Positions 50,379 to 64,000 of a stretch of DNA of 64,000 nucleotides are shown in pieces (the stretch's first letter is position 1; each line of letters starts with the position of its first letter). This DNA comes from Nguyenibacter vanlangensis. Lineage in GTDB: Bacteria; Pseudomonadota; Alphaproteobacteria; Acetobacterales; Acetobacteraceae. A program made the translations under genes and the position numbers. The stretch is taken from the NCBI RefSeq assembly GCF_038719015.1, contig NZ_CP152276.1, positions 248,001-312,000 of the forward strand. The letters are read 5' to 3'. Under the pieces are notes generated by a model, which was given only the letters and a program-made list of their open reading frames with translations, was not told the DNA's origin and searched no databases.

Positions 50379-51130
50379 ATGGATCGCTTAGTACTGACCG
50401 ATGCCCCATGGGCGAAGATAGAACCGCATTGCCTGGGTAAGCTGTCTGATCCCGGACGCAGTGGCCGCGACAACCGGCTATTCATTGAGGCGGTTCTTTG
50501 GATTGTCCGAACAGGCAGCCCATGGCGGGACCTTCCTGCCACATTCGGCAACTGGAATACGGCATTCCGCCGGTTTCGTGATTGGCGCGAAGCTGATGTT
50601 TTCAAGCGGATTTTTGATGCCTTGTCGGGAGACCCCGACATGGAATACGCCATGGTTGATGCCACTATCGTCAAGGTCCACCGGCACGGCCAAGGCGCAA
50701 AAGGGGGACTCAGAGCCAGGCCATTGGTCGTTCCAAAGGCGGGATGACGACCAAGATCCTGGCCCTGACCGATGCCTTGGGTAACCTTGTTCGCTTCAAA
50801 CTGCTACCGGGGAACCGCTACGACACGATCGGCGTCGCCCCTTTGATCGATGGCATCAACTTCGAAGCCCTGCTGGGCGACAAGGCCTTTGATGCCAACT
50901 GGATCATCGAAGAACTCGACCAGCGAGGCGCGAAAGTCGTCATCTCACAACGGTCACAGCGCAAGAACCCGCGCGCCATTGACGAAGAGATATACAAATG
51001 GCGTCACCTGATCGAGAACTTCTTCTGCAAACTCAAGGAGTTCAAGCGCATCGCCATGCGAGCCTGCAAAACCGACCGGAGCTTCGAGGCGATGATATAT
51101 CTCGCCGCAGGTGTCATCAACTCACGCTAA
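50379..51130 (+). CDS. IS5-family DDE transposase, two frames joined by probable -1 frameshift
   Basis: Frame A (50379-50747, 122 residues) has the N-terminal part and the first catalytic Asp94 (YAMVDATIVKVHRHG). Frame B (from about 50705 to 51130) has the second Asp (LLGDKAFD) and the Glu/Lys motif (WRHLIENFFCKLKEFKRIA). Slipping back one base at AAAAGGGGG (50699-50707) joins them as GAKGGTQSQAIGRSKGG, the unbroken sequence seen in intact members of the group, so this is likely programmed frameshifting and not decay. The stop codon overlaps the right inverted repeat. Confidence 0.88.
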
Positions 51131-53630: not shown

Positions 53631-54539
53631 ATGGGATTGCTGCGGACGGATATCTGGCGGACCGGCATCATTGCCCGTCCGATGTCCGACATCCTGGCGC
53701 GCGGGACGGTCGAGGGGTTGCCCGTGACATGGCTGCCCGACCAGGGCGCGTTCCGTTTCCTGGCCGATCCATTCGGGCTGTGGCGGGACGACCGGCTGCA
53801 CGTCTTCGTCGAAGCCTATGATTATCGTGACCGGATCGGCCGGATCGAGATGTTCGTCCTCGACCGGGCCCTGCGCCTGCTGGACAGCAGGCCCGTCCTG
53901 TCCGAGCCGTGGCATCTGTCCTATCCGGTGGTGATCGAGGACGGCGATGCGGTCTATCTGCTACCCGAGGCCCATCGATCGGGGCGGTTGAGCCTGTATC
54001 GTGCGGTCTCGTTTCCCGATCGGTGGATGCGGGTGGAGGATTTCGCCTTTCCGGTGGCGGCGATCGATGCCTCGCCGCTGCGGGTCGGCGACCGCTGGTG
54101 GATCTTCTTCAGTCCGCCCGGGGGCAGCCCGGCGGACCGGCAGAGCCTGCTGCATGCCGCCTTCGCCGACAGCCTGCTCGGCCCGTGGCGGCTGCATCCG
54201 GCCAATCCGCTGCGCTGGGACCGCAGCGCAGCGCGCCCCGGCGGCACGCCCGTGATCGTCGACGGGCGGATCATCCTGCCGACGCAGGATTGCAGCGCCA
54301 CCTATGGCGGGGCGATCACTCCGCTGACCGTCACCGAACTGGGGATGGCGCGCGTCATGACCCGGCCCGGGCCGCAGATCCGTCCGCCATCGTCCTGGAC
54401 GCCGTTCACCGACGGGCTGCACAGCCTGTCGGCGGCGGGGGACGTGACGCTGCTGGACGCCAAGACGATCACCCGCTCGCCGCGCCGGATTGCGATCGAA
54501 CTGGCGCGGCGTGGGCGGCGGCTTATCAGGAACGGGTAG
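53631..54539 (+). CDS. Beta-propeller-like protein resembling the N-terminal domain of plant GINT1 glycosyltransferases
   Basis: 302 residues, no signal peptide. The style (FRFLADPFGLWRDDRLHVFV, IGRIEMFVL, WHLSYPVVIEDGDAVYLLPE, WWIFFSPPGG, LGPWRLHPANPLRWD, RPGGTPVIVDGRIILPTQDC) matches five-bladed propeller proteins related to glycosyl hydrolase family 43 folds, and the ADPF...EAY and SYP...LPE blades recall the N-terminal domain of glucosamine inositolphosphorylceramide transferase 1. No catalytic glycosyltransferase domain is attached. It is convergent with, and overlaps by 14 bp, the GT4 gene of the lipid locus. Role in sugar decoration of lipid is inference. Confidence 0.55.
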   Translation: MGLLRTDIWRTGIIARPMSDILARGTVEGLPVTWLPDQGAFRFLADPFGLWRDDRLHVFVEAYDYRDRIGRIEMFVLDRALRLLDSRPVLSEPWHLSYPVVIEDGDAVYLLPEAHRSGRLSLYRAVSFPDRWMRVEDFAFPVAAIDASPLRVGDRWWIFFSPPGGSPADRQSLLHAAFADSLLGPWRLHPANPLRWDRSAARPGGTPVIVDGRIILPTQDCSATYGGAITPLTVTELGMARVMTRPGPQIRPPSSWTPFTDGLHSLSAAGDVTLLDAKTITRSPRRIAIELARRGRRLIRNG

Positions 54540-55620
54540 GGCGCGAAGCGGGCTGTACCCGATCCAGGATCGCCCGGCCGGCGGCGGCGAACCGCTCCGG
54601 CGCGAATCGGTCCAGCACTTGCGTGCGCGCGGCTTGCCCCATGCTGGCCAGCCGGTCCGGCCGGCGCAGCGCCCGTGCCAGCGCAGCCGCCAGCGCCGGC
54701 GGGTCCCTGGGCGGGACCAGCCAGCCGGACATGCCGTCCTGCACCGTATAGGGGATTTCTCCCACGGCCGAGGCGATCGGCGCCAGGCCGGCCTGCATGG
54801 CCTGATGCACGCCGATGCACAGCCCCTCGTGCAGCGAGGGCTGGACGTAGCCATGTTGCGTCGCCAGGAAGGGCGGCACCGCGTCCTGGAACCCGGCCAG
54901 ATGCAGGTTGGTCAGCCCGTATTGCCGGATCAGCGATTCGAGGTGGGGCCGTTCCGCGCCCTCGCCGGCGATGGTGATTTCGAACGGCGGCAGCGTCGTG
55001 TCGGCCTTCAGTATCGCCAGAGCGTGGCACAGGTGATCATAGCCCTTGACAGGATGCAGGCGCCCCAGCGAGCCGATGCGCACGGGTTCACCCGCTTGCC
55101 AGGGCCGTGCGACCGGGCAGCCCGGATCGGCGCGGAAGATCGGCCACAGCATGGCGCGACTGGGCGGAACGGCCAGGCGATCGTGCATGAAGGCCAGCAC
55201 GCATCGCGAATCGGCCACCCAGAGGCGGCTGAGTCCGCGCAGGGCGCGCAGCAGGCCCGTATTGGCAGGGCTGAGTCCCGCCGAATGCTGCCAACTGACT
55301 ACCGGGATGCGCCGTTTCAGCCCGATCATCTGCCCCATCACCGTGGCGCGGGTCAGCGATGTCCAGATCAGGTCCGGACGCCAGGAAGCGACCTGGCGGT
55401 CCAGCCAGCGCAGGGCGGCGACATGGTCCTGCCTGCTGCCCGCGCGCACCGCCGCTTGCAGGCCGCTTGCGGTGATCGCCGGCAAAGCGCGGCCGTCGCG
55501 GCGCAGCAGCGCGAAGAGCGCGACCTCGTGCCCGCCATCGCGCATCAGGCGGGTGATGTCGGGTACCGGAAAGGCGGCGCCGCCGCCCTCGACCGAATTG
55601 ATCACATAGGCGATGCGCAT
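54526..55620 (-). CDS. Glycosyltransferase family 4
   Basis: 364-residue GT-B glycosyltransferase. N-terminal acceptor side begins MRIAYVINSVEGGGAAFPV, and the donor-binding half shows ITIAGEGAERPHLESLIRQ then PSLHEGLCIGVHQAMQAG, an EX7E-like motif of GT4. It probably transfers a hexose from a nucleotide sugar in the cytosol. It is the last of six minus-strand genes with overlapping junctions, so the acceptor may be the (phospho)ceramide or other lipid made here. Confidence 0.83.
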   Translation of the reverse strand: MRIAYVINSVEGGGAAFPVPDITRLMRDGGHEVALFALLRRDGRALPAITASGLQAAVRAGSRQDHVAALRWLDRQVASWRPDLIWTSLTRATVMGQMIGLKRRIPVVSWQHSAGLSPANTGLLRALRGLSRLWVADSRCVLAFMHDRLAVPPSRAMLWPIFRADPGCPVARPWQAGEPVRIGSLGRLHPVKGYDHLCHALAILKADTTLPPFEITIAGEGAERPHLESLIRQYGLTNLHLAGFQDAVPPFLATQHGYVQPSLHEGLCIGVHQAMQAGLAPIASAVGEIPYTVQDGMSGWLVPPRDPPALAAALARALRRPDRLASMGQAARTQVLDRFAPERFAAAGRAILDRVQPASRPTRS

Positions 55621-56429
55621 GATTCAGCCCCGGTGCGGGCCCCAGTGCGGGCCCCGGTACGGGTCCAGGCGCGGGACAGGATCGCCTCGGCCTGCGCCAG
55701 GTCGGCGGGCTTGTCGATATCGACCGCGGCGCGCCCGTCCGGCAGCGGGACCAGCCGGACCGTGGCGTGGCTCAGGACTCCGATCCGTGCGCACAGCGCC
55801 GCCCGGGTCAGCCGTCCGGTCGCGTAGCGCAGCAGGAGCATCGGCCCCAGCAGGCGGGCCATGCGCAACGGGTGCTTGCGCTGTCGTTCGATCCGTTGCC
55901 ACAGCCGCACGACGCCCAGGGCGGCCGGGGTGCGGAACAGGAACAGGTTGCAGCCGGAAAAGGCGCCGTCCGCCAGGCGGATCAGCGTACGCCTGCCGCC
56001 CGGCGCATCGCGGGCGATATCGCCGGCCATGGCGATGGCGGCCGCCATGTCGCACTGGGTGCCGGCCGAGGCCAGGAACGCATCGATCCATTCGGGGCGA
56101 AGCAGCGCGTGGTCGGCCGTGGTGACCAGCAGGGGCGTGCCCAGCGTCGACAGGGCCTCCATGACGCTGGCGCTGGGTCCTGGCGCCGGGGGCAGGACGC
56201 CGACCGGGTGGTCCAGGACCCCGTCCAGGATTTCGGGTCTTTCGATGCTGACGACGATCCGGCCGACGCGTGGATGGGCCGCCAGCGCGTCCACCACCCG
56301 GGCGATCATCGGACGGCCGGCGACGGGCAGGATCGCCTTGTGCGACACGCCGGCGGCCCGGGCCATCGGGTCGGACGTGCCGGCGCGCGTGCCTGCCAGG
56401 ACCAGGACGGTCAGCAGGCCGTTCGTCAC
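55602..56429 (-). CDS. NTP-transferase domain protein (MobA/GlmU-like nucleotidyltransferase)
   Basis: 275 residues of the nucleotidyltransferase-A fold: VLVLAGTRAGTSDPMARAAG (phosphate loop), HKAILPVAGRPMI (KxxxP...GRPM), and a DHALLRPE metal-binding motif with the Asp in TTADHALLR; DIDKPADL close to the end is the second acidic motif. Such enzymes activate sugar phosphates, polyols or cytidylyl groups. GTG at 56429 overlaps the stop of the hydroxylase gene (GTGA). The C-terminus carries a duplicated ARTG motif from a 12-bp DNA repeat, and the 3' end overlaps the GT4 start by 19 bp. Confidence 0.75.
   Translation of the reverse strand: MTNGLLTVLVLAGTRAGTSDPMARAAGVSHKAILPVAGRPMIARVVDALAAHPRVGRIVVSIERPEILDGVLDHPVGVLPPAPGPSASVMEALSTLGTPLLVTTADHALLRPEWIDAFLASAGTQCDMAAAIAMAGDIARDAPGGRRTLIRLADGAFSGCNLFLFRTPAALGVVRLWQRIERQRKHPLRMARLLGPMLLLRYATGRLTRAALCARIGVLSHATVRLVPLPDGRAAVDIDKPADLAQAEAILSRAWTRTGARTGARTGAESCASPM
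55628..55675. repeat. 12-bp tandem repeats at the 3' end of the nucleotidyltransferase gene
   Basis: Units CCCCGGTGCGGG, CCCCAGTGCGGG and CCCCGGTACGGG (55628-55663) followed by a decayed fourth (TCCAGGCGCGGG). They encode the TRTG-ARTG-ARTG tail on the minus strand, just before the next gene's start. Confidence 0.8.
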
Positions 56430-57208
56430 GCCGCGTTCCGCTGGGGCGGCGCGCCGTCCGGCTTCTCGCGCGGCGGCGCGCCGGTCAGGTCCATCACCCA
56501 GGGATAGAGGGTGGCTTCCTGGAGGTCGTAACCCAGGTTGAAGACATGGGCGCTGCGCGGCCGCGCGCGGGCGTCGGCGTAGTAGCTGCCGAACAGGCGG
56601 TCGACGAAGAAGCTGGTGATGCCGTAATTGCCGTCCTCGTGATGGAAATGATGCAGGACGTGGCGCTGCTTCATCTTCTGGATCCAGCGCATGCGCGGCT
56701 TGTAGTTCAGATGCTGGATGCAGTGGAAGAATTCGTAGATGCAGGTGACGGTCAGCCCGGTCCCCATCGCGGCGGCGGCCCCGCCGAGATGCCCGATCGA
56801 ATAGCCGACGGGCAGGGTGATGAGCGCGATCGTCGGCAGGGTGTTCAGCGGCGAGCCGAACAGCACGTCCAGCAGATGCGGATCCTGATGATGGTCGAAA
56901 TGGATGCGCTTCCACAATGAAGCGGTCCATTTCATCCGGTACAGGAAGCGCCCGTGCAGGATGAAGCGATGGATCAGGTACCACGCGACCGGATAGATCG
57001 CGATGACGGCGCCCATGGCGACCGCGGTAGGCAGGATGCCCGGGAAATGGCGGCCCAGCATCGCGAAGCTGGCCACGGCCAGCGCGATATAGAGCAGGAT
57101 GGTCGGATAGGTCAGGTAGGCGATCCACAACTGGCGGAGATCCATCTTGCCCAGATCGAAGCTCCGCCCGGTGCGGAGGGACCCATTGCGCAATGTCGAG
57201 CCGATCAT
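56426..57208 (-). CDS. Fatty acid hydroxylase / sterol desaturase family membrane protein
   Basis: 260 residues with about four membrane helices and the histidine clusters of membrane di-iron oxygenases: HRFILH (80-85), HFDHHQDPH (103-111), FHCIQH (162-166) and HHFHHED (186-192). Family members hydroxylate or desaturate lipid chains, in sphingolipid synthesis the sphingoid base or the amide-linked acid. The start overlaps the LptG-like stop by 4 bp. Confidence 0.85.
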   Translation of the reverse strand: MIGSTLRNGSLRTGRSFDLGKMDLRQLWIAYLTYPTILLYIALAVASFAMLGRHFPGILPTAVAMGAVIAIYPVAWYLIHRFILHGRFLYRMKWTASLWKRIHFDHHQDPHLLDVLFGSPLNTLPTIALITLPVGYSIGHLGGAAAAMGTGLTVTCIYEFFHCIQHLNYKPRMRWIQKMKQRHVLHHFHHEDGNYGITSFFVDRLFGSYYADARARPRSAHVFNLGYDLQEATLYPWVMDLTGAPPREKPDGAPPQRNAA

Positions 57209-58320
57209 CTCTCTTCTATCCTCAGCATCACGACGCCGACCGCGCACGTGAAGATCACGACGCCTGGCAGGGTCGCCAACAGTGCCGGCAGCGTGCCGGC
57301 ATTGCCCAGGGCCCGCAGCAGTCCCTGGAACACCACGAACAGCAGGCCAGCCCCCAGGCACCAGACGGGCAGCCAGCTTCGCGTACCCGTCCGCGGTGGG
57401 ATATAGACCACCGGCAGCGCCAATAACAGCATGACGACGAAAGTCAGCGGGGTTAGCGCGCGATCCAGCAATGCGGTCCGAAGATAGCCCGGCGGCTGGC
57501 TGGATGGCGCGCGGCCCTGCAGCATGGAAATCGCCGCCGCGGCCGATAGCGGCGGCGTATCGGCCGCCAGGCGCATCACCTGCGCCGGGGTCAGCGGATC
57601 CGGCCCGTCCAGGTCCCGTATCGGGCCGGATGGCAGAGCGGCGGGCCGGACCGATACGGAGGCGACATGCAGCCCGCGGCCGAGGCCGCCGATCCAGTGT
57701 CCGTGTGCGTAACGGGCCGAATCGAGATGGCTGGCTTGCGTCAGCCGCCCGGCCGCGTCGCGCCGATACAGATCCACCTTGCAGAGCAGCCGCCCGCCCT
57801 CTGCCGCATAGCCGACATCGACCAGCGTCGCGCCGCTACGGAACCAGAATCCGTGCCCGGCTTCGGGATGGGGGTCGGTTTCGTTCCACCATTGCGCCAG
57901 CACCAGTTCGGTGCGCGGCGTGACCTGGTCGTCCAGCACCATGTCGGCCAGACCCAGCCCCAGGACGGCCGGCAGGCACAGCGCGACCAGACCGGGCGTC
58001 GACAGGCCCGCCGCCCGCAGGATGGCGATTTCGCTGTTCGTCGTCATCTGGACCAGCAGGAGCAGCGCGCCGATCAGGACGGCCAGCGGACAGATGGTGC
58101 CCAGCAGCATCGGCGCGCGCAGGAGCGTGAAATAGAGCACGCCGCCGAGCCCGAGATGCCGTTCCAGGATCGGGGTCAATTGTTCCAGCAGCGCCAGGAT
58201 TTCCATCAATGCAACCAGGATCGCGCCCGTAGTGGCGACGCGCAGCACCAGCTCGCGCGACAGATAGAAGAGCAGGACGCGGGACCTGCGCGACGACGTG
58301 GGGACCGTGGCGTGCCGCAT
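57205..58320 (-). CDS. LptG-like permease of the YjgP/YjgQ family
   Basis: 371 residues with three hydrophobic helices at each end and a beta-jellyroll periplasmic domain between (about 150-280), as in LptG of the LPS transporter LptB2FG. Marks: SRELVLRVATTGAILVALME, LLRAPMLLGTICPLAVLIG, SEIAILRAAG and a final LLALPVVYIPPRTGTRSWLP. The start is at the TGATG junction with the LptF-like stop. Its sequence lies among lipid genes and not next to lptD-surA-pdxA, the usual alphaproteobacterial site, so it may be a paralogue for another lipid; whether a housekeeping copy exists elsewhere cannot be seen here. Confidence 0.82.
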   Translation of the reverse strand: MRHATVPTSSRRSRVLLFYLSRELVLRVATTGAILVALMEILALLEQLTPILERHLGLGGVLYFTLLRAPMLLGTICPLAVLIGALLLLVQMTTNSEIAILRAAGLSTPGLVALCLPAVLGLGLADMVLDDQVTPRTELVLAQWWNETDPHPEAGHGFWFRSGATLVDVGYAAEGGRLLCKVDLYRRDAAGRLTQASHLDSARYAHGHWIGGLGRGLHVASVSVRPAALPSGPIRDLDGPDPLTPAQVMRLAADTPPLSAAAAISMLQGRAPSSQPPGYLRTALLDRALTPLTFVVMLLLALPVVYIPPRTGTRSWLPVWCLGAGLLFVVFQGLLRALGNAGTLPALLATLPGVVIFTCAVGVVMLRIEER

Positions 58321-59534
58321 CAGGACGGGCCGGTGGCGGGACGCCGCCGCCATGTCCATGCCCATATCCATGCCTGGCCGGCCCCCGCCGATCCTGCGCG
58401 GCGTAGCGCCAGCCAGGTGCAGGCGCAGCAGAACAGGGCATAGGGGCCCCAGATCGCCGGCCATGGCGACAGGCCGCGGCTGGCGACCAGGCTCTGCCCC
58501 AGTTGCAGCGCGTGGTCGAACCCGACCAGGCTGACCGCCGCGATCGCCAGGCCCAGATTCTGCCGCTGCCGCTTGGCCAGGCCGGCCAGGGCGCAGGCCA
58601 GAAGCGGGATGAACGGAATGGCCATGGCGCGCGCAAGGCGGAAATGCAGCTCGGCCAGCAGGTGGGACCGCCGGATGGCGGGATCATGGCCGCGGATCGC
58701 CCGGCGCAGTTCGGGCACGGTCAGTTCCCGCTCGTCATTGCCGCGCGGGCGGAAGGCGCGGGCCGTGTTGCGCGTGCGGAACAGGCGGGTCGTGCTGTCG
58801 AAGAGCGTCAGGGTCGGCCGGCCGTCGTCCCGGTCGGTGACGATGATGCCGTGCGCCAGGTCCAGGCGTACGACGTCGTTGTCGCCAGTCATGAGCAGCC
58901 GGCCGGCGGCGGCGGTGATATCGCGCTCCAGCCCCGGGCTTCGTTCGCGCAGGAAGACGTGGAACAGGCGGGTACCGGCCCCTTCGACCTGGTCGGCGGT
59001 CAGCATCAGCGTGCCGCTGGGCGTGGCGAACATCCGGCTTTGCAGGTGCGGCGCCCACCCGGCATGGCTGGCCAGGTACAGCGCCTGACGGAAATCGTAG
59101 CGGGCATAGGGCTGGATGAAGCCATACAGCGCGAAGCTGATCGCCGCCAGTGCCAGGCCGGAGGCGACGAAGGGACGGGCGATGCGCAGCAGGGACGTGC
59201 CGCCGGCCATCAAGGCGTCGATCTCGTTGTTCTGGCTCATTCTCCGTACGACGGAAAACACGCTGACGCAGATCGCGGCCGGCAGCGCCAGCCCCAGATA
59301 ATGCGGCACCAGGTCGGCCAGCAGGCCCGCGAAGACCTTCAGCGTCCCGCCGTCGGCTGCCAGGACGTCGAACAGGACCAGCAGCCGTTCCAGGAGCAGC
59401 GCGGTCATCACGACGCCCAGCGAGATCGAGAAAGGGGGAAGCATCTGCGCGATCAGGTACCGGTCCAGCGTTCCCGGAAGGATTCGCCGGACGGAAGGAG
59501 GCCAGGACGGAGGAATGAGAGACGCGCGCATCAT
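58320..59534 (-). CDS. LptF-like permease of the YjgP/YjgQ family
   Basis: 404 residues. N-terminal helices (DRYLIAQMLPPFSISLGVVM, LLADLVPHYLGLALPAAICV), the conserved NNEIDALMAGGTSLLRIARP coupling helix, a periplasmic jellyroll domain (about 175-300) and C-terminal helices with AMAIPFIPLLACALAGLAKR. Together with the LptG-like protein it would form the membrane part of an export ABC transporter served by an LptB-type ATPase, which is absent from the window. A C-terminal tail is rich in Trp and Gly. Start 59534 has GGA 6 nt upstream. Confidence 0.82.
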   Translation of the reverse strand: MMRASLIPPSWPPSVRRILPGTLDRYLIAQMLPPFSISLGVVMTALLLERLLVLFDVLAADGGTLKVFAGLLADLVPHYLGLALPAAICVSVFSVVRRMSQNNEIDALMAGGTSLLRIARPFVASGLALAAISFALYGFIQPYARYDFRQALYLASHAGWAPHLQSRMFATPSGTLMLTADQVEGAGTRLFHVFLRERSPGLERDITAAAGRLLMTGDNDVVRLDLAHGIIVTDRDDGRPTLTLFDSTTRLFRTRNTARAFRPRGNDERELTVPELRRAIRGHDPAIRRSHLLAELHFRLARAMAIPFIPLLACALAGLAKRQRQNLGLAIAAVSLVGFDHALQLGQSLVASRGLSPWPAIWGPYALFCCACTWLALRRAGSAGAGQAWIWAWTWRRRPATGPS

Positions 59535-59591
59535 GGCGTCCAACACATACGCGCCGCGTTCAACGGACTCAAATCGCACCGGGCTCAAAAC

Positions 59592-60500
59592 TCAAAATCG
59601 CACGCGGGCGGCTCTTTCCGTCTCGATCGACCAGCAGGGCAGTTCGCGTACGACGTGTCCCGAGGTGACGATGCGGCGGTGGATCTCGGCCCGGTAGCCC
59701 CGGGTGGTGGCGGTGACGGCGATCCGGTGCCATGCCGCCGCCCGTTCCTGGCGCCTGGCGTGCATCGATGCGGAGGCGATGCCCAGGACCGGAACCAGCC
59801 CCTCGGGCCCGGGCAGGGTGGACATGCAGGATATGTGCGCATGGCCGTGCAGGACCATTTCGGCGCCCGTCCTGGCGATCGCGGCGGCGAACAGGCCGGC
59901 ATCCAGCAGCGACTTGCGGTGCGATACCAGGCCGGTGATGGGCGGATGATGGATCATGACCACGCGGAAGCGGCCCTGCCGCCCGGCTTCATGCAGGATA
60001 TCGGCCAGGCGGGCCGCCTGCCTGGCGCCGATCCGTCCGGCGGCGGAGAACCAGGCCATCGGCCGTGCCGAATTGACGCCGATCAGCGCCAGCGGGCCGA
60101 TATGGCGCAGGTAAGGGAAACCGTCGGCGTCCGCTGCCATCCACGGGGCCCACTGGCCCAGCGTCTCGGACCACGATTCGCGGACCAGCATGTCGTGATT
60201 GCCGGGAATGGCGCAGATCGGACCCGGCAGGCGCGTATGCAGCCATTCGGCCGCCTGCCGGCATTCGGCCGGCAGGCCCAGATTGGTCAGGTCGCCCGTC
60301 AGCGCCACGACATCCGGAGCCATCGCACGGATATCGGCGGCAACGGCGTCCGCCACCGCGCGGACATGCAGGAAGCGCCGCTTGCAGCGCCAGGAGATCT
60401 GACTGGTCATCCGCTTGTTCAGCAACGCCCTGGCCGGAATGCGCAGCCTGTCATGCGGCAGATGCAGGTCTGAGAGATGGGCCAGCGTGATCTCGGGCAA
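59592..60500 (-). CDS. Metallophosphoesterase (calcineurin-like)
   Basis: 302 residues with the five blocks of the calcineurin-like fold: SDLHL (Asp11, His13), LTGDL (Asp70), PGNHD (101-103), MIHHPP and LHGHAH. The TTG start at 60500 is supported by AGGAG (60509-60513, minus strand) 8 nt upstream. It is a hydrolase of unknown phosphoester; within the lipid locus it may remove a phosphate from a lipid head group. First gene of the six-gene minus-strand operon; divergent from the lipid kinase across about 140 bp. Confidence 0.85.
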   Translation of the reverse strand: MPEITLAHLSDLHLPHDRLRIPARALLNKRMTSQISWRCKRRFLHVRAVADAVAADIRAMAPDVVALTGDLTNLGLPAECRQAAEWLHTRLPGPICAIPGNHDMLVRESWSETLGQWAPWMAADADGFPYLRHIGPLALIGVNSARPMAWFSAAGRIGARQAARLADILHEAGRQGRFRVVMIHHPPITGLVSHRKSLLDAGLFAAAIARTGAEMVLHGHAHISCMSTLPGPEGLVPVLGIASASMHARRQERAAAWHRIAVTATTRGYRAEIHRRIVTSGHVVRELPCWSIETERAARVRF

Positions 60501-60508
60501 GCAAAGCA

Positions 60509-60513
60509 CTCCT
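60509..60513 (-). promoter_or_regulatory. Ribosome-binding site fixing the TTG start of the metallophosphoesterase
   Basis: AGGAG on the minus strand, 8 nt before TTG 60500. It overlaps the alternative upstream GTG, which therefore cannot be the start. Confidence 0.65.
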
Positions 60514-60568
60514 GTGGCCGGCGCAGGCGGGCGCGGGGCTTCGTGGACGGGGCATCGATGTTCCCGCC

Positions 60569-60597
60569 TTGCAATGGCGTCTGGAACGCGGCTTATG
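60569..60597 (+). promoter_or_regulatory. Promoter candidate of the lipid kinase operon
   Basis: TTGCAA (60569-60574), 17-bp spacer, CTTATG (60592-60597), 42 bp before the GTG start of the kinase gene. Confidence 0.35.
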
Positions 60598-60638
60598 AGC
60601 CTACGAATGTACGACGCACAGAAAAAGGCCGGCGCGGC

Positions 60639-61622
60639 GTGAGCGAACCGTTTGCCCTGATCCATAATTCGCGCAGTCGGCGCAATGGGGTGGAGGATGG
60701 CAGTTTCCGCAAGCGGGCGGCCCGCGCGCTGGGGCCGCTCTTCTTCCATTCCACCAGCCGGACCCTGCTGCCCGAAGCGGTGGCTGAACTGGCGCGGCGC
60801 GAGGTCGGGGTCATCGCCGTCGATGGCGGGGATGGCACGGTCAGCGACGTCATGTCGGCCATCCATCGCTTCTACCCGACGGATGCGCTGCCGGCGCTGG
60901 CGGTCCTGCCGTCGGGCAATACCAACCTGATTGCCGCCGATGTGGGGTTCGGCCTGCGCGGCCGCGCGGCGCTGGAACGCCTGACGGTCATGGCGCGCGC
61001 GGGCACGCTGCGCAGCACGGTCGCCCGGCGCGACGCGCTGGCCATTCGATGGTCCGATTCTACGCGCCCGGTAGCCCTGGGCATGTTCCATGGGGCGGCG
61101 GCCTTCACAAAGGGGGTTCGCATCGCCCACCGGCCGGCCATCCTGAACCGGTTCTCGCACGATATCGCGGTCGCCGTGGCCATCGCGTCGTCGTTGGGAC
61201 GTCTGATGTTCCGCTCCACACGCCGCAAATGGCTGGCTGGGAATCCGGTCACCCTGGCCGTCGGGGCGGAGGCGCCGCGGACGATGGATTGCTTCCTGTT
61301 CATGGCCACGACCCTGCGTTGCCTGCCGCGCGGCATGTGGCCTTTCGCCGCGCGGCAAGGGGCGGACGACGGAGCAGGATTGGCCTACTTGAACGTGCGG
61401 GCCTTTCCCGAGCGGCTGCTCGCGGCGACATGGGCTTCGCTGCGGGGCGAGACGCCGGCCTGGCTGGACAGTGCGCCGGCCTATGAACGGGGGCGGGCCG
61501 ACTGCCTGTCGCTGCGGATCGACGGGTCCTTCGTTCTGGACGGCGAAATCTGGGATTCCGGCCCGGATGGGCGAACGATCCTGACGGCCGGCCCGCGTTT
61601 CGATTTCATCCGGGGGGCGTGA
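60639..61622 (+). CDS. Diacylglycerol/ceramide kinase-type lipid kinase
   Basis: 327 residues of the DAGK/LCB5 (COG1597) family: opening FALIHNSRSRRNG, the nucleotide-binding VDGGDGTVSDVM and LPSGNTNLIAADVG, then a C-terminal beta-sandwich (LRIDGSFVLDGEIWDSGPDG). Members phosphorylate diacylglycerol, sphingosine or ceramide; in Caulobacter a member of this family in the sphingolipid locus (CpgB) is a ceramide kinase. Given the neighbouring serine palmitoyltransferase, ceramide is the likely substrate. GTG start. The stop shares one base with the next start (TGATG), so the two proteins probably act together. Confidence 0.83.
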   Translation: MSEPFALIHNSRSRRNGVEDGSFRKRAARALGPLFFHSTSRTLLPEAVAELARREVGVIAVDGGDGTVSDVMSAIHRFYPTDALPALAVLPSGNTNLIAADVGFGLRGRAALERLTVMARAGTLRSTVARRDALAIRWSDSTRPVALGMFHGAAAFTKGVRIAHRPAILNRFSHDIAVAVAIASSLGRLMFRSTRRKWLAGNPVTLAVGAEAPRTMDCFLFMATTLRCLPRGMWPFAARQGADDGAGLAYLNVRAFPERLLAATWASLRGETPAWLDSAPAYERGRADCLSLRIDGSFVLDGEIWDSGPDGRTILTAGPRFDFIRGA

Positions 61623-62602
61623 TGGGGTCCGATCATTCCGCCATGGCGGCGGCAGGGCGGGTGGGGCACCTGCTGGCCGGTGAACTGATCCAGTCGGTCG
61701 ACCCTGCCGTCACCGATTTCGTGGCGCGGCTGGTGGGCGACGCGCCGGTGCTGGGGGTCCTGTTCTATGGCTCGGCATTGCGGCAGGCAGATCCGGACGG
61801 AGTCCTGGATTTCTATGTGGTGGTGGCGCGCCAGGCCGACTGGCCGCGCGGCCGTGCGGCCAGGGTGGCCAACGCTTTGCTGCCGCCGAACGTGGAATAT
61901 CATGAAGCGACGGCCGGTGGTCGGTTTCTGCGCGCCAAGGTCGCGATCGTCACGCTGGCCCAGTTCCGGGCGCTGACCGGTCGCGGCACGCTGGACACCA
62001 CGATCTGGGCCCGGTTCTGTCAGCCGGCGCGGCTGGTGTGGGTGCGGGATGCCGATGCCGCCGATGCCATTCTGGGCTGCCTGATCCGGGCGATTGCGGT
62101 GGCGTCGTGGTGGGCGGCCTGTCTCGGCCCCGTGCAGGGAACGGCGGAACTGTACTGGGATGGGCTGTTTGCCCGGACATACGGTGCCGAACTGCGCGTC
62201 GAAACGGCGGCCCGGGCCCGCAGCCTGCTGGACGGCCGGGTGGCGCGCTACCGCGCCCTGCTGGAGGCGGCATGGCAGGCATCGGGCCTGTCCTTTACCC
62301 AGACGGGTGACCAGTTTCGTCCCGCGCTGCCGGACGCGGTCCGGGCGCGGGCATGGCGGAGGTGGGCGCTGCGCAGCCGGCTCGGGCGTCCGTTGAACGT
62401 GGCGCGCCTGGCCAAGGCCGTGTTCACCTTCGCCGGGGGGGCGCGCTATGTCGCTTGGAAGATCCGCCGCCATTCCGGGGTCGAACTGCGGCTGACGCCG
62501 TTTGCCGAGCGCCATCCGCTGCTCTGCCTGCCCCGGCTGTTATGGTCGCTGCACCGGGCGGGATTGTTTCGGCGGACGGAACAGCGGGACGGCAGCCCCT
62601 GA
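61622..62602 (+). CDS. Tam41-like nucleotidyltransferase (phosphatidate cytidylyltransferase-like)
   Basis: 326 residues. The N-terminal half resembles the nucleotidyltransferase core of mitochondrial CDP-diacylglycerol synthase Tam41/Mmp37: GVLFYGSALRQADPDGVLDF holds the YGS loop (49-51) and Asp63, followed by FYVVVARQADW. The rest (for example WWAACLGPVQGTAELYWDG, a Trp-rich helix) is also Tam41-like. Together with the lipid kinase it could turn a phospho-lipid such as ceramide phosphate into a CDP-lipid or add another head group. The reaction is inference. Confidence 0.7.
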   Translation: MGSDHSAMAAAGRVGHLLAGELIQSVDPAVTDFVARLVGDAPVLGVLFYGSALRQADPDGVLDFYVVVARQADWPRGRAARVANALLPPNVEYHEATAGGRFLRAKVAIVTLAQFRALTGRGTLDTTIWARFCQPARLVWVRDADAADAILGCLIRAIAVASWWAACLGPVQGTAELYWDGLFARTYGAELRVETAARARSLLDGRVARYRALLEAAWQASGLSFTQTGDQFRPALPDAVRARAWRRWALRSRLGRPLNVARLAKAVFTFAGGARYVAWKIRRHSGVELRLTPFAERHPLLCLPRLLWSLHRAGLFRRTEQRDGSP

Positions 62603-62614
62603 CCAGGCTGTGCC

Positions 62615-63811
62615 TTATTGCCGCAGGCCCAGTTCGCCGGCCACGGTGGCGAAGACGTCCACCGCGCGGTCGATCTGCGCGGCACTGTGCGTCGCCATCA
62701 CCGAACTGCGCAGCAGAGGATGCTGGTCCGGCGTCGCGGGCGGCAGGCTGAGATTCACGTAGACACCCAGATCCAGCAGCCGGTTCCAGAACCGTACCGC
62801 CTGCGCGACGTCGTCCAGCACTACGGAGACCACCGGGCTGGCCTGCGGGCCGGTACGTAGGCCGGCGGCATTCAGCCCGGCATGAAGCCGGCGTGCATTG
62901 TCCATCAGAGCGTGGCGCAGTTCGGGCCGGCTTTCCAGTTCGCCCAATGCGGCCATCGTCGCCGCGATGACGTCGGGCGGCAAGGATGCGGTGAACATGT
63001 AAGGGCGCGAGCACAGGCGAATCAGGTCCAGCCCGTCATGGTCCGATACGCAATAGCCGCCGACCGTGCCCAGGCTTTTGGAAAACGTGCCGACCACGAA
63101 GTCGACATCGGCTTCGACGCCGTCGGCTTCCGCCACGCCGCGGCCGTGTGCGCCCATGACGCCGACCGAATGGGCCTCATCGGCCAGCAACCATGCGCCG
63201 GTCTCGCGTTTCACGGCGGCGAATTCGGCCATCGGCACGACATCGCCCATCATGGAATAGATGCCTTCGACCACGATCAGCTTCGCTCCCGGCGTGCCGT
63301 CCAGGCGGCGCAGGCGCTTGCGCAGGTCCTCGGGATCATTATGGCGGAACCGAATCACCTGCGCATGGCCCAAGCGGCTGCCGTCATAGATGCTGGCGTG
63401 GCTGTCGGCATCCAGCAGCAGGTAGTCGTCCTTGCCGGCCAGGGCGGAGATCACGCCCAGATTGGCCTGGTATCCCGTCGAAAACACCATGCAATGGCGT
63501 CGCCGGAAGAACCGGGCGATGCGCTCCTCCAACTGGCGGTGCAGGCCCTGGGTCCCGTTTGCGATCCGTGACCCGGTGGTGCCCACGCCGTGGGTGCGCA
63601 ACGTGTCGATCGCGGCCGTGACAGCGGATTCGGACTGGCTGAGGCCCAGATAATTGTTGGTGCCGAACAGCAGCGTCTCGCGTCCTTCGATCAGCCCGAC
63701 GGTCGAGGAGACCGGCCGCTCGATCACCACGGCAAACGGATTGCGGCCGCCACCCGCAGTGACGGCGGCCAGCGAACGGGCCAGCCCGTCATACTTGCTG
63801 AAAATCGACAT
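62615..63811 (-). CDS. spt: Serine palmitoyltransferase-like alpha-oxoamine synthase
   Basis: 398 residues of the PLP alpha-oxoamine synthase family. PLP Lys245 is in GTFSKSLGTVGGY; His138 (ADSHASIYDG), Asp211 and His214 (ADEAHSVGVMG) complete the cofactor site, and TNNYLGLSQS and GTTGSRIANGTQGLH are family hallmarks. Similar enzymes are KBL, AONS (BioF) and ALAS. Serine palmitoyltransferase is favoured because an adjacent ACP gene lies 5 bp upstream, as in Caulobacter and sphingomonads, and no bio or hem genes are present. It makes 3-oxosphinganine from serine and an acyl thioester. It ends convergently 12 bp from the Tam41-like gene. Confidence 0.82.
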   Translation of the reverse strand: MSIFSKYDGLARSLAAVTAGGGRNPFAVVIERPVSSTVGLIEGRETLLFGTNNYLGLSQSESAVTAAIDTLRTHGVGTTGSRIANGTQGLHRQLEERIARFFRRRHCMVFSTGYQANLGVISALAGKDDYLLLDADSHASIYDGSRLGHAQVIRFRHNDPEDLRKRLRRLDGTPGAKLIVVEGIYSMMGDVVPMAEFAAVKRETGAWLLADEAHSVGVMGAHGRGVAEADGVEADVDFVVGTFSKSLGTVGGYCVSDHDGLDLIRLCSRPYMFTASLPPDVIAATMAALGELESRPELRHALMDNARRLHAGLNAAGLRTGPQASPVVSVVLDDVAQAVRFWNRLLDLGVYVNLSLPPATPDQHPLLRSSVMATHSAAQIDRAVDVFATVAGELGLRQ

Positions 63812-63816
63812 CGGGA

Positions 63817-64000
63817 TCAGCCGCCGTGTTTCAGCGACACGATGCAGGCGGCCAGGTCGTCGATGGTCCGGATATCGGCAAGCCGGTCGAGCGGCACGGA
63901 GACGTCGAGCGAATCCTCGATCTCCATCACGAAATTCATGACCGCGAGTGAATCGAACGCCAGGTCCTCGACGATCTTGCTGCCGCCATCGATGTCCCGG
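63817..64000 (-). CDS. Acyl carrier protein of the sphingolipid locus, 5'-truncated by the window edge
   Basis: The last 61 codons of a small acidic carrier are visible: VEDLAFDSLAVMNFVMEIED holds the phosphopantetheine Ser (FDSLAVM) and the end is ACIVSLKHGG. It differs from the housekeeping acpP ([10 protein letters not shown]). It lies 5 bp before the serine palmitoyltransferase gene, so the two are co-translated and this ACP should present the acyl chain to that enzyme. Not listed in any frame with a start because the window ends first. Confidence 0.87.
   Translation of the reverse strand, partial: RDIDGGSKIVEDLAFDSLAVMNFVMEIEDSLDVSVPLDRLADIRTIDDLAACIVSLKHGG

What the first reader, a model, noticed from the sequence alone, without database searches (positions are those of the whole stretch)
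54526..64000. Sphingolipid locus containing its own LptF/LptG-like permease pair
Serine palmitoyltransferase and a dedicated ACP lie next to a lipid kinase, a lipid hydroxylase, a glycosyltransferase and a pair of YjgP/YjgQ permeases in one overlapping operon. LptF/LptG normally export LPS and in alphaproteobacteria usually adjoin lptD-surA-pdxA. Their position inside a sphingolipid locus suggests a second Lpt-type machine that extracts glycosylated or phosphorylated ceramides from the inner membrane, using a shared LptB ATPase. The export role is inference; the synthesis role is well supported by family membership.
Basis: partly seen in the sequence, partly recalled or inferred. Interest (0 to 1): 0.8.

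Follow-up and report, generated by a model that had tools for sequence, protein, structure and literature searches.

The report
Second Lpt pair for sphingolipid export
An acetic acid bacterium carries, inside its sphingolipid gene cluster, its own copy of the membrane extractor pair that normally exports lipopolysaccharide; genome comparisons suggest that it ships sphingolipids to the cell surface, an idea already proposed in print for a relative but not yet tested.

Summary
In detail: window 57205-59588 encodes an LptF/LptG pair beside serine palmitoyltransferase (SPT), an acyl-carrier protein, a lipid kinase, a hydroxylase and a glycosyltransferase. It is not one operon; kinase and p327 run the other way. 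The genome (Gluconacetobacter, by kinship) has three LptFG pairs: beside lptD-surA (A), beside inositol-lipid genes (B), and this one (C); one LptB, LptC, LptA and LptD were found. A, B and C are separate clades. In 193 alphaproteobacterial genomes C-type LptF occurs in 28, all with SPT; 3 more have SPT without it. In 17 of the 28, LpxC is missing (no LPS inferred), the C pair is by copy count the only complete LptFG pair, and LptD is kept; the other 11 have at least 4 LptF/G copies. Against: 3 genomes without LpxC or SPT also keep LptFG and LptD. Best reading: a sphingolipid extractor driven by the shared LptB and feeding the LptA-LptD bridge. Olea-Ozuna et al. 2024 proposed this for Caulobacter LptC2/F2/G2, so the kind is known. 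The class-wide pattern and the inositol-linked lineage were not seen in the papers found. Function is untested.

The parts
54526..55620 (-). Glycosyltransferase group 1 (GT4-like)
   Evidence: PF00534 1.1e-28
55602..56429 (-). MobA/IspD-like nucleotidyltransferase
   Evidence: PF12804 3.7e-15
56426..57208 (-). Fatty-acid / sphingolipid hydroxylase
   Evidence: PF04116 3.9e-19 on the frame 56426-57310; ATG at 57208 overlaps the LptG stop as ATGA
57205..58320 (-). LptG2-like permease (C type)
   Evidence: PF03739 6.5e-49; ORF runs to 58464 but ATG at 58320 overlaps the LptF stop as TGATG
58320..59588 (-). LptF2-like permease (C type; start uncertain)
   Evidence: PF03739 2.1e-55; C group in the LptF tree
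59592..60473 (-). Calcineurin-like metallophosphoesterase (start uncertain)
   Evidence: PF00149 1.6e-9
60477..61622 (+). Lipid kinase, DAGK family, candidate ceramide kinase (start uncertain)
   Evidence: PF00781 1.3e-10
61619..62602 (+). p327: conserved protein without a Pfam family, nucleotidyltransferase-like motif
   Evidence: no Pfam or NCBIfam match; 36-row alignment with invariant Y50, G51, D64; AF2 model mean pLDDT 91.1
62615..63811 (-). Serine palmitoyltransferase
   Evidence: NF047599 637.7 bits, cut-off 500; PDB SPTs
63817..64000 (-). Acyl-carrier protein, cut by the window end (whole in L008:11818-12060)
   Evidence: PF00550 1.8e-9

Best explanation
The pair is a sphingolipid-dedicated extractor (LptF2G2). 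Ceramide is made by SPT, ACP, the acyl-AMP ligase and enzymes not located here, then hydroxylated, phosphorylated and given a head group by the kinase, p327, NTP transferase, phosphoesterase and glycosyltransferase. [quoted passage not shown] Shown by sequence: the gene set, three LptFG lineages, one copy each of LptB, LptA, LptC and LptD found, coupling glutamates, co-occurrence with SPT, and being the only complete LptFG pair (by copy count) in C-type genomes without LpxC. Inferred: the lipid carried, the order of its synthesis, use of LptB, LptA and LptD, and direction of transport.
For: Three pairs in one genome; canonical pair beside lptD-surA-ksgA. One LptB, LptC, LptA and LptD. C-type LptF (219 bits or more; next score 116) in 28 of 193 genomes from 18 families, SPT in 31, overlap 28 (Fisher 1.1e-30, genomes not independent). 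In 5 families the class sample has both states and SPT and LptF2 switch together (f19, f23, f36, f68, f94). 17 of 28 lie within 20 kb of SPT; of the 26 whose LptD position was listed none lies within 15 kb of LptD. LpxC absent: 17 of 17 have LptF and LptG side by side, 2 copies in all (G239 has a third), and LptD; LpxC present: 11 of 11 have at least 4 copies. Clade support: LptF C 97, A 98, B 100; LptG C 94, A 100, B 100, SH-aLRT from quick trees. Coupling Glu in 42/42 C LptF and 42/42 C LptG (role from passages of PMC5082905). Published: Caulobacter CC_1156 mutant has cofitness 0.60 with CC_1159 (PMC11324152, section 8).
Against: No transport experiment exists in what I read. Three SPT genomes lack C-type LptF: G115 (LpxC present, two LptF/G copies), G240 (has B-type instead) and G106 (no LptFG, LptD or LpxC match), so two further families (f48 with G106, f12 with G240) do not switch together. 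Of the 26 genomes without LpxC, 3 (G100, G103, G159) keep two LptF/G copies and LptD without SPT or C-type LptF, so keeping Lpt without LpxC does not need a sphingolipid, or LpxC was missed there. 21 of the 80 best C-type loci in named genomes have none of seven sphingolipid-locus markers nearby, 16 of the 21 titled Parvularculaceae, Parvularcula or Marinicaulis; whether those genomes have SPT elsewhere was not tested. Caulobacter's proposed LptC2 has no counterpart found here (one LptC). LpxC absence was taken as absence of LPS; no chemistry.
Confidence: 0.75

Rival explanations
1. The pair is a spare or modified LPS exporter that merely sits in the sphingolipid locus.
For: Same Pfam family; some named proteins that match the C-type profile are called 'lipopolysaccharide export'; C-type proteins from two genomes without LpxC pass the LPS-export NCBIfam cut-offs.
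Against: A separate pair adjoins lptD; C type is by copy count the only complete pair in 17 of 17 C-type genomes without LpxC; separate clade; window pair scores below both LPS-export cut-offs, 181.5 against 230 and 181 against 240.
Confidence: 0.07
2. The pair moves ceramide or its derivative across or within the inner membrane (flippase-like) and does not hand it to the LptA-LptD bridge.
For: CerR acts in the periplasm in Caulobacter, so a flipping step is needed (PMC11087976 passages); no second LptA or LptD was found in the window's genome.
Against: Known LptFG are extractors with a periplasmic bridge contact; LptD is kept in 17 of 17 C-type genomes without LpxC, most easily explained if a lipid still travels to it. 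But 3 genomes without LpxC or SPT keep LptD too, so this is not compelling.
Confidence: 0.1
3. It exports some other lipid made by the locus enzymes; the tie to SPT is indirect.
For: Kinase and p327 are near C-type LptF more often (50 and 48 of 80) than SPT is (35 of 80); 16 Parvularculaceae-type loci lack all seven markers nearby.
Against: 28 of 28 C-type genomes in the class sample have SPT even when it lies on another contig or further than 20 kb away (11 of 28).
Confidence: 0.08

Closest known systems
Caulobacter crescentus LptC2/LptF2/LptG2 (CC_1168, CC_1156, CC_1155), Olea-Ozuna et al. 2024, PMC11324152 (outline, sections 8 part 1, 9 and 13, and passages seen)
   Same: Second LptFG pair in the SPT locus with kinase, acyl-AMP ligase and nucleotidyltransferases; proposed to export phosphosphingolipids; orthologues of the gene set noted there in Hyphomonas, Sphingomonas wittichii, Zymomonas, Nitrosomonas, Azotobacter and Pseudomonas luteola
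   Different: Here no LptC2 was found (section 9 says that Nitrosomonas, Azotobacter and P. luteola lack it too); this locus has a glycosyltransferase and a hydroxylase; the genome holds a third, inositol-linked pair. Direct sequence comparison with Caulobacter was not made
LptB2FGC-A-DE LPS exporter (E. coli)
   Same: PF03739 pair, coupling-helix glutamates, single LptB, LptA, LptC and LptD found
   Different: Separate clade, not beside lptD, below the LPS-export equivalog cut-offs, the only complete pair in C-type genomes without LpxC
Bacteroides BT1522-1526 inositol phosphoceramide operon (PMC8791184, passages)
   Same: Inositol-phosphate synthase and head-group transfer genes, as at the B-type locus
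   Different: No Lpt or permease word in that paper's main text (0 occurrences); the B locus here has its own LptFG pair

Membership tests
LptF/LptG permease family (PF03739) | Family profile over nearly full length | tested here: met
   6.5e-49 and 2.1e-55, profile 2-352 and 1-353 of 353
LPS-export LptF/LptG (TIGR04407/TIGR04408 equivalogs) | Curated cut-offs 230 and 240 bits | tested here: not met
   181.5 and 181 bits; the A and B pairs of this genome pass, and so do C-type pairs of two genomes without LpxC, so the cut-off is not diagnostic
LPS-export LptF/LptG | Neighbourhood of lptD-surA | tested here: not met
   Met by another pair at 4.43 Mb, not by this one
Sphingolipid-locus LptF2/LptG2 (Caulobacter type) | Extra pair inside an SPT locus while a canonical pair exists elsewhere | tested here: met
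Sphingolipid-locus LptF2/LptG2 (Caulobacter type) | Same clade as CC_1156/CC_1155 | not tested
   Caulobacter sequences were not obtained; no record titled Caulobacter was among the 80 loci kept of 309
Sphingolipid-locus LptF2/LptG2 (Caulobacter type) | Companion LptC2 (present in Caulobacter; by section 9 of PMC11324152 absent from three of six other genomes with the set, so not defining) | tested here: not met
   One PF06835 match in the genome; a very diverged LptC2 could be missed
LptB-driven ABC extractor | Conserved coupling-helix glutamate in both permeases | tested here: met
   42/42 and 42/42 C-type rows, the window's included
LptB-driven ABC extractor | Physical complex with LptB | not testable with these tools
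   No complex prediction or experiment available
Serine palmitoyltransferase (NF047599) | Curated cut-off 500 bits | tested here: met
   637.7 bits

The most novel reading that the evidence does not exclude
Lpt is a modular lipid-export platform: one LptB motor and one LptA-LptD bridge served by interchangeable, lipid-specific LptFG extractors, here three in one cell (LPS, ceramide-based lipid, inositol lipid). In alphaproteobacteria without LPS the same bridge and LptD become a sphingolipid translocon driven by the C-type pair alone.
Probability: 0.45. Interest if true: 0.85.

Novelty: new member of a known kind. Interest (0 to 1): 0.62.

Why it matters
How bacterial sphingolipids reach the outer membrane is stated as not known in two 2024 papers (PMC11324152 and PMC11087976, passages). 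A pair that tracks SPT across 18 families, and that is by copy count the only complete LptFG pair in C-type genomes without LpxC, turns this into a direct genetic test. It would also mean that some proteins labelled 'LPS export' in bacteria without LPS are misnamed.

Tried and rejected
Considered and rejected: spare LPS exporter (contradicted by three pairs and the C-type genomes without LpxC); chance neighbourhood (conserved core order in the family, class-wide co-occurrence). The NCBIfam LPS-export cut-offs looked like a test of membership, but C-type pairs from two genomes without LpxC pass them, so I do not use them as proof. Inositol-phosphate synthase does not predict a B-type pair: 15 of 193 genomes have it, 2 of 193 have B-type LptF. 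The named-genome scan did not return Caulobacter among the 80 loci kept. Promoter and terminator scans were uninformative.

Limits. The ten library searches were seen as listings; I opened six papers, in passages or sections. Among these I recognised one that proposes LptF2/G2 for sphingolipids (PMC11324152) and none on an inositol-linked LptFG or on a sphingolipid-type pair as the only LptFG in genomes without LPS genes. Most subscription journals and preprints are not held, and supplementary files were not open to me, so the supplement of PMC11324152 may say more. The trees (69 and 68 rows) are quick trees with SH-aLRT only; the LptG tree carries a long-branch warning for A with B. Group labels were not independent of sequence: B rows by best match or locus, C loci because they matched the C-type profile or lay in the sphingolipid locus, A loci among the remaining matches, so the clean split is partly built in; for some A loci (such as L067, L069, L066) lptD is on another contig. 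Copy counts come from a search that scores at most 10 first-look candidates per genome in the class run; none of the 17 C-type genomes without LpxC exceeded that.
Full report
What is there. The minus strand from 54526 to 59588 carries a glycosyltransferase, a MobA-like nucleotidyltransferase, a fatty-acid hydroxylase and an LptG-LptF pair, followed by a metallophosphoesterase; a lipid kinase and p327 lie divergently on the plus strand; then SPT and an ACP on the minus strand, the ACP cut by the window end, and a fatty-acyl-AMP ligase outside. SPT passes NCBI's SPT model (637.7 bits, cut-off 500) and its nearest solved structures are SPTs. The LptF stop and LptG start overlap as TGATG, the LptG stop and hydroxylase start as ATGA.

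Three LptFG pairs. PF03739 finds six copies in three pairs in the 4.75-Mb genome. Pair A adjoins lptD, surA and ksgA (gene names from the translations; LptD confirmed). Pair B adjoins inositol-phosphate synthase, a nucleotidyltransferase and a CDP-alcohol transferase. Pair C is the window's. Against these stand one LptB over its cut-off (373 bits, next 139.7), one LptC, one LptD and, besides LptD, one LptA-like protein with two matches. The genome is a Gluconacetobacter by inference: a same-genus genome has a contig of exactly the length recorded for a G. takamatsuzukensis protein, and the nearest named proteins are from that genus.

Family level. Of 60 Acetobacteraceae genomes, 32 have 2 copies, 3 have 3, 22 have 4, 2 have 6 and 1 has 8. 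I looked at extra pairs in 20 of the 25 genomes with 4 or more. In 18 of the 20 a C pair has the same core order (p327-kinase-phosphoesterase-LptF-LptG), the outer genes varying; SPT is in the fetched stretch in 16 of the 18, once at only 33% identity. G037 gave a B pair; for G054 the stretch fetched was the canonical pair.

Class level. In 193 genomes of at least 95% completeness drawn across the class, C-type LptF (219 bits or more; the next score is 116) is in 28, SPT in 31, both in 28. The 28 fall in 18 families. Within five families the sample contains both states and the two genes switch together; in two further families (f48, f12) an SPT genome lacks C-type LptF. SPT is within 20 kb in 17 of 28, further off on the same contig in 3, on another contig in 8, so the link is not only neighbourhood. 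LpxC is missing in 26 of 193. Among the 28, the 17 without LpxC have LptF and LptG side by side and 2 copies in all (G239 has a third, not placed), and all 17 keep LptD; the 11 with LpxC have at least 4 copies. Of the 156 LpxC genomes without C-type LptF, 144 have 2 copies, 5 have 3, 2 have 4, 4 have 1 and 1 has none. This reads as: an A pair goes with LPS, a C pair goes with sphingolipid. The other 9 genomes without LpxC are a mixed lot: G064, G106, G125, G133, G141 and G220 have neither LptF/G nor LptD, while G100, G103 and G159 keep 2 copies and LptD without SPT or C-type LptF. So without LpxC, Lpt is kept in 17 of 18 SPT genomes and in 3 of 8 others; the three weaken the argument or reflect a missed LpxC. 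Rhodothalassium salexigens shows that an alphaproteobacterium with dihydroceramides and without LPS is a chemical reality (PMC11762602 passages); whether it is in my sample I do not know.

Counter-cases. G106 has SPT but no LptFG, LptD or LpxC match. G115 has SPT, LpxC and two LptF/G copies, without C-type LptF. G240 has SPT and no C-type LptF, but a B pair beside SPT, acyl-AMP ligase and the CDP-alcohol transferase, with inositol-phosphate synthase next to SPT on a second contig; the SPT matches on both contigs are cut by the contig ends. I read G240 as an inositol-sphingolipid version of the same arrangement; that is inference. Among the best 80 of 309 C-type loci in named records, SPT is within the fetched flank in 35, the kinase in 50, p327 in 48, none of seven markers in 21, lptD in none; flanks differ in length (46 of 80 loci are over 20 kb).

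Lineages and mechanism. LptF of types A (22), B (5) and C (42) each form one side of a branch (98, 100, 97), LptG likewise (21, 5 and 42 rows; 100, 100, 94); the labels were partly chosen by sequence, so this shows that the types are distinct, not how they arose. The glutamate that couples LptF and LptG to LptB in E. coli (PMC5082905 passages) is present in 42/42 C LptF, 42/42 C LptG, 5/5 and 5/5 B, 22/22 A LptF and 20/21 A LptG. So C and B pairs should be driven by the one LptB. The rest of the route (LptC, LptA, LptD) is inferred from single copies and from LptD being kept in the C-type genomes without LpxC.

What is known. Olea-Ozuna et al. 2024 (PMC11324152; outline, sections 8 part 1, 9 and 13, and passages seen) name LptC2, LptF2 and LptG2 in the Caulobacter sphingolipid locus, list orthologues of the gene set in six other proteobacteria and suggest that they export phosphosphingolipids, without testing it; they report cofitness of CC_1156 with CC_1159 of 0.60. 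What I did not see in the papers found is the class-wide profile, the pair as the only complete LptFG in genomes without LPS genes, and the inositol-linked third lineage. p327 is probably the counterpart of CC_1161, which that paper describes as having a CDP-diacylglycerol-synthase domain; this rests on gene order and on a motif recalled from memory, and its fold was not compared.

Noticed in passing
G000:C1:4021204-4027907 (L009:5205-11908): Third LptFG pair (B type) beside inositol-phosphate synthase, a nucleotidyltransferase, a CDP-alcohol transferase and a glycosyltransferase; among the best 120 of 637 relatives of its LptF are proteins named from Gluconacetobacter, Aliidongia and Nitrospirillum.
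   Followed up: partly
   Followed up: partly
   Followed up: partly
   Followed up: no
   Followed up: no
   Followed up: no
window 61619-62602: p327, a conserved protein without any Pfam or NCBIfam match, found in the fetched flank in 48 of the 80 best C-type loci; confident AF2 model, no fold comparison made.
   Followed up: partly
window 50379-51130: Transposase-like frames (IS5-like by eye) split into two ORFs, about 3 kb from the end of the locus.
   Followed up: no
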